Below, one piece after another: positions 7,290-30,321 of a stretch of 64,000 nucleotides of DNA. A program made the translations under genes and the position numbers. The DNA lies in NCBI RefSeq assembly GCF_009831415.1, contig NZ_CP043727.1, positions 496,001 to 560,000 on the forward strand, in the 5' to 3' direction. A model generated the notes under the pieces. It was not told where the DNA came from, did not search any database, and saw only the letters and a program-made list of their open reading frames with translations. Every line of letters begins with the position of its first letter. Positions within the stretch are counted from its first letter, which is position 1. Origin of the DNA: Yersinia canariae. Lineage in GTDB: Bacteria > Pseudomonadota > Gammaproteobacteria > Enterobacterales > Enterobacteriaceae.

Positions 7290-7317
7290 TTGCGGCAAAA
7301 CGGATTTCTCGTATAAT
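7290..7317 (+). promoter_or_regulatory. Sigma-70 promoter of the tRNA-Gly operon
   Basis: A -35 box TTGCGG (7290-7295) and a perfect -10 box TATAAT (7312-7317) are separated by 16 bp. The -10 is followed by the GC-rich discriminator GCGCACCCCG, typical of stringently controlled stable-RNA promoters. The first tRNA starts about 70 bp downstream. Confidence 0.8.
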
Positions 7318-7388
7318 GCGCACCCCGTACCGATGAAGAATTCGCGAGCTTGCGCAAACAGATTCAGTACCGGAAAATATGACGCAGT

Positions 7389-7464
<76 letters not shown>

Positions 7465-7561
7465 ATTTCTTGAGTCATAAAGGAATTGGTCATAAAGAAG
7501 TCAGTAGTAAAAGAAATAAAAAGTATAAAAGTGATGTGTTTTTTTAGCGCATGACGGCGAC

Positions 7562-7637
<76 letters not shown>

Positions 7638-7702
7638 AAATTTTATTTCTTTCAGTACGGGTTACTTCAGATAGTCAAATATTGCCTTAATGGCATTTCA
7701 AT

Positions 7703-7778
<76 letters not shown>

Positions 7779-7804
7779 AAATTATTTATTCAATTCTGTC
7801 TTAA

Positions 7805-8040
7805 TTATCCACAGCTCAGTCACGCGCTGCACCTCGTTCCACATACATTGTATTAACTTCTTCAACAGAGTTATCCACAGATTCTGCTGTTTTTGTATTC
7901 AGTTCATAATTTAACCACTTTAATTTCCTGTTTTATAACCATTTGATTTAGTTGTGTATATTTTTATGTGAAAACGTTATGCCGATCACTTGTGCTTTTT
8001 TTTGCACTTGATTGCCAAGGTGTTTTTATTTTTATACACA
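7805..8040. promoter_or_regulatory. datA: datA-like DnaA-titration locus (DnaA boxes plus IHF site)
   Basis: Between the last tRNA-Gly and queG lie about 340 bp without a gene. Three DnaA boxes fit the consensus exactly: TTATCCACA at 7805-7813, TTATCCACA at 7871-7879 and TTATACACA at 8032-8040. A fourth, on the opposite strand at 7953-7961 (TGTGTATAT), has one mismatch. An IHF site matching YAANNNNTTGATW exactly (TAACCATTTGATT) lies at 7936-7948, between the second and third boxes. In E. coli, datA lies beside glyVXY and queG, has several DnaA boxes with IHF binding between boxes 2 and 3, and promotes hydrolysis of DnaA-bound ATP. The location and order of sites agree; function here is inferred. 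Confidence 0.8.
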
Positions 8041-8120
8041 GGAAAACTCTGAGTTCATTTATAACAGAAATAGCTAAAAAAACTCTGCTCAACGTCATTC
8101 GACATCAGGCAAAAGTGGCA

Positions 8121-9275
8121 TCAGGCATCTCGTGGCAGGCCTTTTTCAATCGCTCTCACCAGCCGTTTTTTCTGCGGCAATTGAACATCCCCAATCAGTG
8201 TAGACCGTCTTTTCAATTGCTGTGAGATTGCCCATTCAATATGTTCATCTAACATGGAGTCAATACCGCGACGCGCTTCCAATGCCAATACAATCTTATC
8301 GAGATAGGGCGCATTGCCTAACGCGACCGAGATATTGCGTAACCAGCGCAGGTGGCCAATTCGCCGGATGGCTGAGCCCTCAGTGACCCGCAAAAATTTT
8401 TCTTCATTCCAGGCAAATAAATCCAGTAACTGCGGTGTATGCAACACAGCGCGCGGACTGAAATCCTCCTCATCGGTTAATTGTGAGAAACGATTCCAAG
8501 GACAGATTAATTGGCAATCATCACAACCATAAATACGATTACCCATTAGTGGACGAAATTCTTCAGGTATCGCGCCTTCCAGTTCAATCGTCAGGTAAGA
8601 GATACAGCGGCGTGCATCAACAGTATAAGGGGCCACGATAGCCCCGGTCGGGCAGGTCGTGATGCAGGCGACACAACGGCCACATTGTTCTTCTTGGGGG
8701 GTATCGACAGGTAGCGGTAAGTCAATAAGCAGCTCACCGAGGAAGAACCAGGAGCCAGCATCGCGATTTAATATCAGTGAGTGCTTACCAACCCAGCCAA
8801 TGCCGGATTTGGCGGCCAGCGAGCGCTCCATTATCGGGGCCGAATCGACAAACGGGCGGAAATTGATATCATCGCCTGTCTGCTCCAGACAATAATTCTG
8901 AATCATATCGCCCAATTTTTTCAGGCGCTGGCGTAATAATTTATGATAGTCACGGCCCAATGCATAACGACTGACATACCCCAATTCTGCATTCTTTAAT
9001 GTGCTGGCAAATGCCGCCTTGGCGGGCAGATAATTCATCCGCACGCTAATCACCCGTAAAGTGCCGGGTAATAATTCATGGGCGCGCGCGCGTAACATAC
9101 CGTGGCGGGCCATCCAGGCCATTTCGCCATGATATTGTTTATCAAGCCAGGCCTGTAAGCGCGGTTCTTCCGCTGACAAATCAGTATCGCAGATACCGAC
9201 TTGCTGGAAACCTAGCGATTGCCCCCATTGCTTGATATGTTGGGCTAATTGATTCAGATCGAGGGGGTGTGCCAT
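8121..9275 (-). CDS. queG: Epoxyqueuosine reductase QueG
   Basis: QueG performs the last step of queuosine synthesis, reducing epoxyqueuosine in the tRNA wobble position with a cobalamin cofactor and two [4Fe-4S] clusters. The cluster ligands are visible in CGRCVACITTCPTGAI and CDDCQLICPWN. The chosen start gives 384 residues beginning [17 protein letters not shown], which aligns with the E. coli N-terminus. A longer frame upstream would add 25 residues unlike the family and run into nnr. The ATG overlaps the divergent nnr ATG by two bases. A HEAT-like C-terminal region ends the protein. Confidence 0.93.
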   Translation of the reverse strand: MAHPLDLNQLAQHIKQWGQSLGFQQVGICDTDLSAEEPRLQAWLDKQYHGEMAWMARHGMLRARAHELLPGTLRVISVRMNYLPAKAAFASTLKNAELGYVSRYALGRDYHKLLRQRLKKLGDMIQNYCLEQTGDDINFRPFVDSAPIMERSLAAKSGIGWVGKHSLILNRDAGSWFFLGELLIDLPLPVDTPQEEQCGRCVACITTCPTGAIVAPYTVDARRCISYLTIELEGAIPEEFRPLMGNRIYGCDDCQLICPWNRFSQLTDEEDFSPRAVLHTPQLLDLFAWNEEKFLRVTEGSAIRRIGHLRWLRNISVALGNAPYLDKIVLALEARRGIDSMLDEHIEWAISQQLKRRSTLIGDVQLPQKKRLVRAIEKGLPRDA

Positions 9276-29834: not shown

Positions 29835-29928
29835 TCATTTTTCAGCCGCACACAAACACGTTCCTTGCCTCCATGGGCCGCGGTTGACCCTATCAGGAGG
29901 CTGAATAATCCGTAAGGAGCAATAATCG
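29835..29928 (+). promoter_or_regulatory. rpsF mRNA leader, candidate S6:S18 autoregulatory element
   Basis: The leader contains GCCTCC (29867-29872), which can pair with GGAGGC (29896-29901). The enclosed loop carries GGGCCGCGG and GACCC. A hairpin with a CCG-containing bulge is the known binding motif of the S6:S18 complex in rpsF leaders. The arrangement fits, but I could not fold it rigorously. Confidence 0.5.
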
Positions 29929-30321
29929 ATGCGTCATTACGAAATCGTTTTTATGGTCCATCCTGACCAAAGCGAACAGGTTCCGGGCATGATCGAGCGC
30001 TATAGTGCAACTATCACTAATGCTGCTGGCACGATCCACCGTCTGGAAGACTGGGGCCGCCGTCAACTGGCTTACCCGATCAATAAACTGCACAAAGCTC
30101 ACTACGTTCTGCTGAACGTTGAAGCTCCGCAGGAAGCGATCGATGAGCTGGAAACAAACTTCCGCTTCAACGACGCCGTTATCCGTAGCATGGTTATGCG
30201 CGTTAAGCACGCGGTAACTGAAGCATCACCAATGGTTAAAGCGAAAGACGAACGCCGTGAGCGTCACGACTTCGCGTCAGAAGCCAATGATGATTCTGAA
30301 GCTGGGGATTCTGAAGAGTAA
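29929..30321 (+). CDS. rpsF: 30S ribosomal protein S6
   Basis: S6 binds 16S rRNA as a heterodimer with S18. The 130-residue protein begins [19 protein letters not shown] and contains [13 protein letters not shown], both conserved. The acidic C-terminal tail ends EAGDSEE, where RimK adds glutamates in E. coli. The AAGGAG ribosome site is close to consensus. It is the first gene of the operon. Confidence 0.98.

What the first reader, a model, noticed from the sequence alone, without database searches (positions are those of the whole stretch)
7779..8120. datA-like DnaA-titration locus between tRNA-Gly genes and queG
The gene-free block holds three exact DnaA boxes (7805, 7871, 8032), a fourth with one mismatch on the other strand (7953) and an exact IHF site (7936-7948) between the second and third boxes. 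In E. coli, datA sits at this same locus and uses IHF between boxes 2 and 3 to promote DnaA-ATP hydrolysis. Finding the same order of sites suggests the system is conserved in this organism, with box spacing that can be compared.
Basis: partly seen in the sequence, partly recalled or inferred. Interest (0 to 1): 0.8.

Follow-up and report, generated by a model that had tools for sequence, protein, structure and literature searches.

The report
Conserved DnaA-switch-off site datA in Yersinia
The stretch between the tRNA-Gly genes and queG is the Yersinia copy of datA, the DNA site that E. coli uses to switch off its replication starter protein DnaA; comparing about 75 genera shows an almost fixed layout and two conserved stretches whose function is not known.

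Summary
In detail: the only three exact TTATNCACA boxes of the 64-kb window lie here, with an exact IHF site between the second and third. The locus is an orthologue of E. coli datA: same neighbours, order, direction and spacing (box 2 to IHF site 65 bp in both; box 2 to box 3 161 bp, 162 in K-12) and the same distance from oriC (10.7% versus 10.1% of the chromosome). The reverse box at 7953 is not conserved; box 7 (7859-7867) was overlooked. Of 77 regions, about one per genus, 75 carry this datA, with box 2 to box 3 at 157-164 bp in 73. Two points look new: (1) two unannotated elements between IHF site and box 3 (D, GATCNCTTG; E, TTGANNNNCAA), at least as conserved as the IHF site and at set distances from box 3; (2) where datA lacks an adjacent tRNA-Gly gene, a stable-RNA-like promoter usually points at it (11-17 of 23 by scoring, 0 of 23 on the other strand), as the read-through model of datA control would predict. 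Function is inferred from E. coli; nothing was measured. Species not identified beyond Yersinia.

The parts
7389..7778 (+). three tRNA-Gly(GCC) genes (7389-7464, 7562-7637, 7703-7778), counterpart of glyV-X-Y
   Evidence: same place in K-12
7303..7338 (+). promoter of the tRNA-Gly operon, TTGCGG-N16-TATAAT-GCGCACCC (approximate ends); inferred source of read-through transcription into datA
   Evidence: sequence, hexamers and spacing; function inferred from PMC10950094
7805..7813 (+). DnaA box 1, TTATCCACA
   Evidence: a box with at most 1 mismatch in the 110-25 bp before box 2 in 51 of 75 loci, at -67 to -65 in 44 of them
7859..7867 (+). DnaA box 7 counterpart, TCTTCAACA, 12 bp before box 2
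   Evidence: NNNNNNACA-GAS-box 2 context in 75 of 75 loci with at most 1 mismatch
7871..7879 (+). DnaA box 2, TTATCCACA
7936..7948 (-). IHF-binding site AATCAAATGGTTA (TAACCATTTGATT on +), 65 bp after the start of box 2
   Evidence: at most 2 mismatches at +60 to +70 in 66 of 75 loci, at +65 in 53 of these
7976..7992 (.). element D, GTTATGCCGATCACTTG; no known function
   Evidence: 1.08 bits per position in 54 loci against 0.89 for the IHF site; GATCNCTTG with at most 1 mismatch in 57 of 75, shuffles 0.27%
8008..8018 (.). element E, TTGATTGCCAA; no known function
   Evidence: 1.26 bits per position; TTGANNNNCAA with at most 1 mismatch in 70 of 75, shuffles 2%
8023..8031 (+). T-rich tract TTTTTATTT before box 3
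   Evidence: 1.15 bits per position
8032..8040 (+). DnaA box 3, TTATACACA, 161 bp after the start of box 2
8121..9275 (-). queG, converging on datA from the right

Best explanation
The block 7805-8040 is the Yersinia datA. As in E. coli, IHF would bind 7936-7948 after initiation and bend the DNA sharply, so that ATP-DnaA on boxes 7 and 2 meets ATP-DnaA on box 3, all pointing the same way; the assembly triggers hydrolysis of DnaA-bound ATP and so prevents a second start of replication. The near-fixed 65 + 96 bp geometry fits such a folded complex. Transcription reading through from the tRNA-Gly promoter would help to remove IHF before the next round. Shown here: the sites, their order, direction, spacing, chromosomal position and conservation. 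Inferred from E. coli: DnaA and IHF binding, ATP hydrolysis, timing, effect of transcription. Elements D and E probably bind something within the same complex (further low-affinity DnaA contacts, or a timing factor); that part is a guess.
For: Same neighbours and geometry as K-12. 75 of 77 regions carry box 7/2 and box 3, spaced 157-164 bp in 73 of 75, while the spacer between box 2 and IHF site is near neutral (0.14 bits per position against 0.89 to 1.92 for the sites). Distance to oriC 10.7% of the chromosome against 10.1% in K-12. DnaA and four HU/IHF-family genes are present, two of which read like IhfA and IhfB (names recalled). E. coli requirements taken from passages of PMC5742627 and PMC5835720. 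datA persists where queG was not found (G034, G511) or is in pieces (G427, G429, G450, G498).
Against: No binding or activity data. 9 of 75 loci have 3 mismatches at the IHF site. The box 7 counterpart here is poor (TCTTCAACA). No reverse box follows box 3 (best has 3 mismatches). In 28 of 77 regions no tRNA-Gly ends within 200 bp of box 2 (3 of them contig edges, 2 without datA), so the tRNA link is not universal. Two of 77 regions lack datA next to queG.
Confidence: 0.92

Rival explanations
1. Pure titration: the boxes only soak up DnaA near oriC, and the IHF site and the distances are incidental.
For: datA was first described as a titration site and also titrates (PMC5835720, passages); PMC12371093 (one section read) reports boxes accumulating near oriC.
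Against: Titration needs no fixed distances, yet box 2 to IHF site is 65 bp in 53 of 66 loci with a recognisable site and box 2 to box 3 is 161 bp in 54 of 75. Elements D and E are not boxes.
Confidence: 0.05
2. Chance cluster of boxes and an IHF-like match in A+T-rich intergenic DNA.
For: One-mismatch boxes are not enriched in the window and IHF-like matches are common in it (10).
Against: 0.011 exact-box triples expected per genome; conservation at fixed spacing in 75 of 77 regions.
Confidence: 0.01
3. For elements D and E only: they are leftovers of another function, such as a transcription terminator of queG or of the tRNA operon, or the yjeV gene.
For: E lies where E. coli yjeV is annotated to begin, and T-rich tracts are near.
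Against: The yjeV start codon is present in 13 of 54 loci; no covarying hairpin, one weak pair apart; the elements keep their distance to box 3 (GATC at -48 in 49 of 57, TTGA at -24 in 59 of 70) and all 51 exact joint matches are at datA.
Confidence: 0.2
4. For the promoter facing datA in loci without adjacent tRNA-Gly: it drives an undescribed small RNA gene between it and datA, and datA control has no part in it.
For: In five Xenorhabdus-type loci part of the presumed transcript is conserved too (55% invariant over 100 bp downstream).
Against: No Rfam family at gathering score there in the 19 loci given; the promoter recurs in several lineages always aimed at datA and never on the other strand.
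Confidence: 0.3

Closest known systems
E. coli K-12 datA (DDAH), box 2 at 4,392,744 of NC_000913.3
   Same: Neighbours tRNA-Gly operon and queG; boxes 7, 2, IHF site, 3 in order and direction; box 2 to IHF site 65 bp; distance to oriC about 10% of the chromosome; elements D (GATCACTTG) and E (TTGAATTGCAA)
   Different: Box 2 to box 3 161 instead of 162 bp; box 1 exact here, one base off in K-12; box 7 poorer; no reverse box after box 3; K-12 lacks the GTTA part of D
oriC box R4 region of E. coli
   Same: Box 2 stands in the same context as R4, ACAGAGTTATCCACAG (E. coli oriC letters recalled, typed)
   Different: No unwinding element; in this genome ACAGASTTATCCACA occurs only at datA
DARS1 / DARS2
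   Same: Non-coding DnaA-box clusters, DARS2 with IHF (PMC8682772, passages)
   Different: DARS reactivate DnaA and have boxes in opposing directions; the boxes here all point one way. DARS were not looked for in this genome

Membership tests
datA / DDAH | Intergenic site between the tRNA-Gly operon and queG | tested here: met
datA / DDAH | High-affinity boxes 2 and 3 in the same direction | tested here: met
   both exact TTATNCACA on +
datA / DDAH | Low-affinity box 7 next to box 2 | tested here: met
   TCTTCAACA at 7859-7867, same register as K-12 TTGTAAACA; weak by sequence
datA / DDAH | Single IHF site between boxes 2 and 3 at the E. coli spacing | tested here: met
   exact, +65 in both species
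datA / DDAH | Box 4 (stimulatory in vitro, not essential in cells according to PMC5742627; one legend in PMC8407004, lists it as essential) | tested here: not met
   no reverse box within 2 mismatches after box 3; that the K-12 reverse box after box 3 is box 4 is my assumption. Not counted as defining, since sources disagree
datA / DDAH | Proximity to oriC | tested here: met
   10.7% against 10.1% of the chromosome
datA / DDAH | IHF-dependent DnaA-ATP hydrolysis, IHF binding after initiation, extra initiations on deletion | not testable with these tools
   needs biochemistry and cells

The most novel reading that the evidence does not exclude
datA is a larger machine than described. Besides boxes 7, 2, 3 and the IHF site it has a fixed module D-E (GATCNCTTG, 15 bp, TTGANNNNCAA, starting 48 and 24 bp before box 3) that binds the still unknown factor postulated for timely IHF release in E. 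coli, or a further set of ATP-DnaA contacts; and transcription through datA is under selection in its own right, since lineages whose datA is not next to the tRNA operon usually carry a stable-RNA-like promoter aimed at it.
Probability: 0.35. Interest if true: 0.75.

Novelty: new member of a known kind. Interest (0 to 1): 0.5.

Why it matters
The datA papers that I could see deal with E. coli, and the one conservation study among them compares 59 E. coli genomes (PMC4585315, section read). Finding datA with an almost fixed layout in about 75 genera makes the E. coli model comparable: it shows which distances are held and points to two sites for which I found no reported test. PMC10950094 (discussion read) states that an unknown factor must act in timely datA-IHF dissociation; D and E are concrete candidates for its target. 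The promoter facing datA in loci without adjacent tRNA-Gly is an independent, evolutionary test of the claim that transcription through datA controls IHF binding.

Tried and rejected
Reverse box at 7953: not conserved. D-E as RNA hairpin or terminator: no covariation beyond one weak pair (139-145, 50 of 54 against 48.2 by shuffling). E as a second IHF site: the next best IHF-like offset after the true site is +145 (6.74 of 9 against 7.72), which A+T-richness may explain; left open. E as a low-affinity DnaA box at +138: 4.98 of 8, about the level of shifted T-tract matches; left open. D as an oriC 13-mer-like element: 6.59 of 11 at +113, below the T-tract at +149 (7.70); not supported. The promoter of tRNA-less loci made out of a dead tRNA-Gly gene, its anticodon arm serving as -35: tempting in single loci (27 bases in L137, also Pectobacterium L006 and others), but over 19 promoters identity outside the hexamers was 0.31 upstream, 0.27 in the spacer, 0.29 downstream, against shuffle means 0.24, 0.26, 0.29 and maxima 0.31, 0.32, 0.35 and tRNA-operon controls 0.27, 0.35, 0.27; only the upstream part touches the largest of 200 shuffles, so I dropped it. 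L150 does hold a tRNA-Gly 3' relic between promoter and datA. Rfam between promoter and datA: nothing but tRNAs in the 19 loci given with the window. The block labels were set before the elements were delimited; the D and E values used here are those. The first multiple alignment (output cut in the middle) was replaced by gap-free anchoring. Kasho 2017 and Nozaki 2009, the main mutational papers, were not read: the first is not held, the second was seen only in reference lists.

Full report
WHAT IS THERE. The gap between the last tRNA-Gly gene (ends 7778) and queG (8121-9275 on -) holds TTATCCACA at 7805 and 7871 and TTATACACA at 8032, the only exact TTATNCACA in the 64-kb window, and an exact IHF consensus at 7936-7948 on -. 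The chromosome (4,710,154 bp, one contig) has 209 exact boxes, so a triple within 236 bp is expected 0.011 times.

IT IS datA. In E. coli K-12, annotated glyV, glyX, glyY and queG flank the same layout: box 7 TTGTAAACA, box 2, IHF site TAACCTATTGATA at +65, box 3 at +162. Here the IHF site is at +65 and box 3 at +161. According to passages of two reviews (PMC5742627; PMC5835720) and the introduction of PMC10950094 (part 1 of 2 read), boxes 2, 3 and 7 and the IHF site are essential in E. coli, and the essential boxes share one direction. All four are present here by sequence; box 7 is weak, and box 4, which most of the sources call stimulatory, has no counterpart. The first 170 bases of the contig match E. 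coli oriC (74% identity), so datA lies at 10.7% of the chromosome from oriC, against 10.1% in K-12. dnaA and four HU/IHF-family genes are present.

CONSERVATION. queG was searched in 129 genomes of the same family, about one per genus; 78 had a match. Of the 51 without, 46 are genomes of 2.0 Mb or less (sizes). I took the stretch beyond the queG 3' end from 76 of the other 77 genomes with a match (G447, with queG in pieces, was left out) and added the window: 77 sequences. 75 of 77 have box 7/2 (at most 1 mismatch to ACAGASTTATCCACA) and box 3 (at most 2 mismatches to TTTTATNCACA); the two without are L149 and L201. Box 2 to box 3 is 161 bp in 54 of 75 and 157-164 bp in 73 of 75; the other two read 131 and 154. 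With box 3 sought only at +145 to +175, an IHF site with at most 2 mismatches at +60 to +70 is found in 66 of 75, at +65 in 53 of these (14 exact, 31 with one, 21 with two mismatches, 9 loci with three). A box 1 (at most 1 mismatch) is found upstream in 51 of 75. In the 54 loci with 161 bp, stacked without gaps, information per position is 1.92 bits for box 2, 1.67 for box 3, 1.47 for box 7, 0.89 for the IHF site and 0.14 for the spacer between box 2 and IHF site: the geometry is held while the filling drifts. In a separate sample of the whole order the exact pattern (box 7/2, 140-160 bp, TTWTNCACA) is in 16 of 19 genomes of this family, the 3 misses being of 1.0-1.2 Mb, and in 3 of 238 genomes of other families. 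Of those three, G020 has the 161-bp spacing but no exact D-E match; G026 and G051 have 165 bp and were not followed up.

TWO UNANNOTATED ELEMENTS. Between IHF site and box 3, D (GTTAnnnnGATCnCTTG) carries 1.08 bits per position and E (TTGAnnnnCAA) 1.26, more than the IHF site. Anchored on box 3, GATCNCTTG with at most 1 mismatch is in 57 of 75 loci, at -48 in 49 of them; TTGANNNNCAA is in 70 of 75, at -24 in 59 of them; shuffled sequence gives 0.27% and 2.0%. The exact joint pattern is found in 51 of 129 genomes, once in each, with 0 for the reversed control. 49 of these are the datA loci fetched from queG regions, the window among them; the other two, G034 and G511, had no queG match, yet the pattern again sits in a datA. 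In the window's genome the longer pattern has one exact match, at datA, and otherwise three matches with 2 or 3 mismatches. Against: at this stringency 18 of 75 loci lack D and 5 lack E; L170 and L176 lack both clearly; K-12 lacks the GTTA of D; related loci are not independent. No RNA hairpin explains the elements, and the start codon of yjeV, which overlaps E in K-12, is present in 13 of 54 loci. Both lie between box 7 and box 3, about 182 bp in K-12, which I take to be the 183-bp minimal datA of PMC5742627 (the same review also gives 262 bp). I did not find D or E described in the searches or in what I read of the papers; the main mutational papers are not held, so this absence is weak.

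THE tRNA NEIGHBOUR AND A SECOND PROMOTER. In 49 of 77 regions a tRNA-Gly gene ends less than 200 bp before box 2, in 7 it ends 429-966 bp before it, and in 21 none was seen in the fetched stretch, of which 3 are contig edges (L131, L142, L176) and 2 have no datA (L149, L201). orn was searched in the 16 genomes behind named loci that I gave and found in all; tRNA-Gly follows orn in 14 of the 16 loci, and the two Pantoea stretches end before it. In the 23 evaluable loci without an adjacent tRNA-Gly I scored sigma-70-like sites in the 300 bp before box 2. Toward datA 17 of 23 beat shuffles at p of 0.05 or less, on the other strand 0 of 23. In a rerun with fewer shuffles, for 300 and 400 bp, the count toward datA was 15 and 15 with and 12 and 11 without a bonus for a G+C-rich discriminator, and 0 on the other strand each time. 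The gap between tRNA and box 2 of tRNA-adjacent loci gave 0 of 49. A typical site is GCTTGCCA-N17-CATAAT-GCCGCC. Limits: the hexamer frequencies are recalled; the bonus was chosen after seeing some of the sites; five loci (L169, L185, L203, L204, L205) carry nearly the same site and count as about one. L196, L197, L200 and L202 show no such promoter under any setting. In five Xenorhabdus-type loci (four named, L146 unnamed) the promoter stretch is 84% invariant, against 22% over 100 columns upstream and 55% downstream. G511 has such a site too. PMC10950094 (discussion read) proposes that read-through from the tRNA promoter is needed for IHF to leave datA. The pattern here is what that model predicts; it is support, not proof.

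MECHANISM. Most likely as in E. coli: IHF bends the DNA between boxes 2 and 3, ATP-DnaA assembles head to tail on boxes 7, 2 and 3, and its ATP is hydrolysed; transcription helps to clear IHF. Only the sequence layout and its conservation are shown here.

VERDICT. The finding is correct and in itself expected: datA in another enterobacterium, a new member of a known kind. Its interest comes from the comparison, which exposes D, E and the promoter. Interest 0.5; the bold reading, at 0.35, would deserve 0.75.

Noticed in passing
G034 (L208) and G511 (L209): datA with D-E present although no queG was found in the genome; L208 has three tRNA-Gly genes beside it.
   Followed up: partly
L170 (G474, 1.6 Mb genome): orn end, tRNA-operon-type promoter and box 7/2 are there, but the tRNA-Gly genes, D and E are not.
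   Followed up: no
L097 (Brenneria), after tRNA-Gly: The stretch after the tRNA-Gly next to orn reads like a phage-type integrase gene (by eye), so an island may have parted tRNA-Gly from datA.
   Followed up: no
L150 (G453): A 17-base tRNA-Gly 3' relic lies between a promoter and datA.
   Followed up: partly
   Followed up: no
G000:C1:614611-614674 (outside the window): Two exact DnaA boxes facing each other 55 bp apart.
   Followed up: no
L207 (G020, another family of the order): A box 7/2-box 3 pair with the same 161-bp spacing but no exact D-E pattern and no tRNA gene in the 1.7-kb stretch.
   Followed up: partly
window, 10 places: The IHF consensus WATCAANNNNTTR is over-represented (10 against 3.25 expected, 0 of 100 shuffles as high).
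   Followed up: no
window 29845-29931: RpsF leader (RF02893), 102.6 bits.
   Followed up: no
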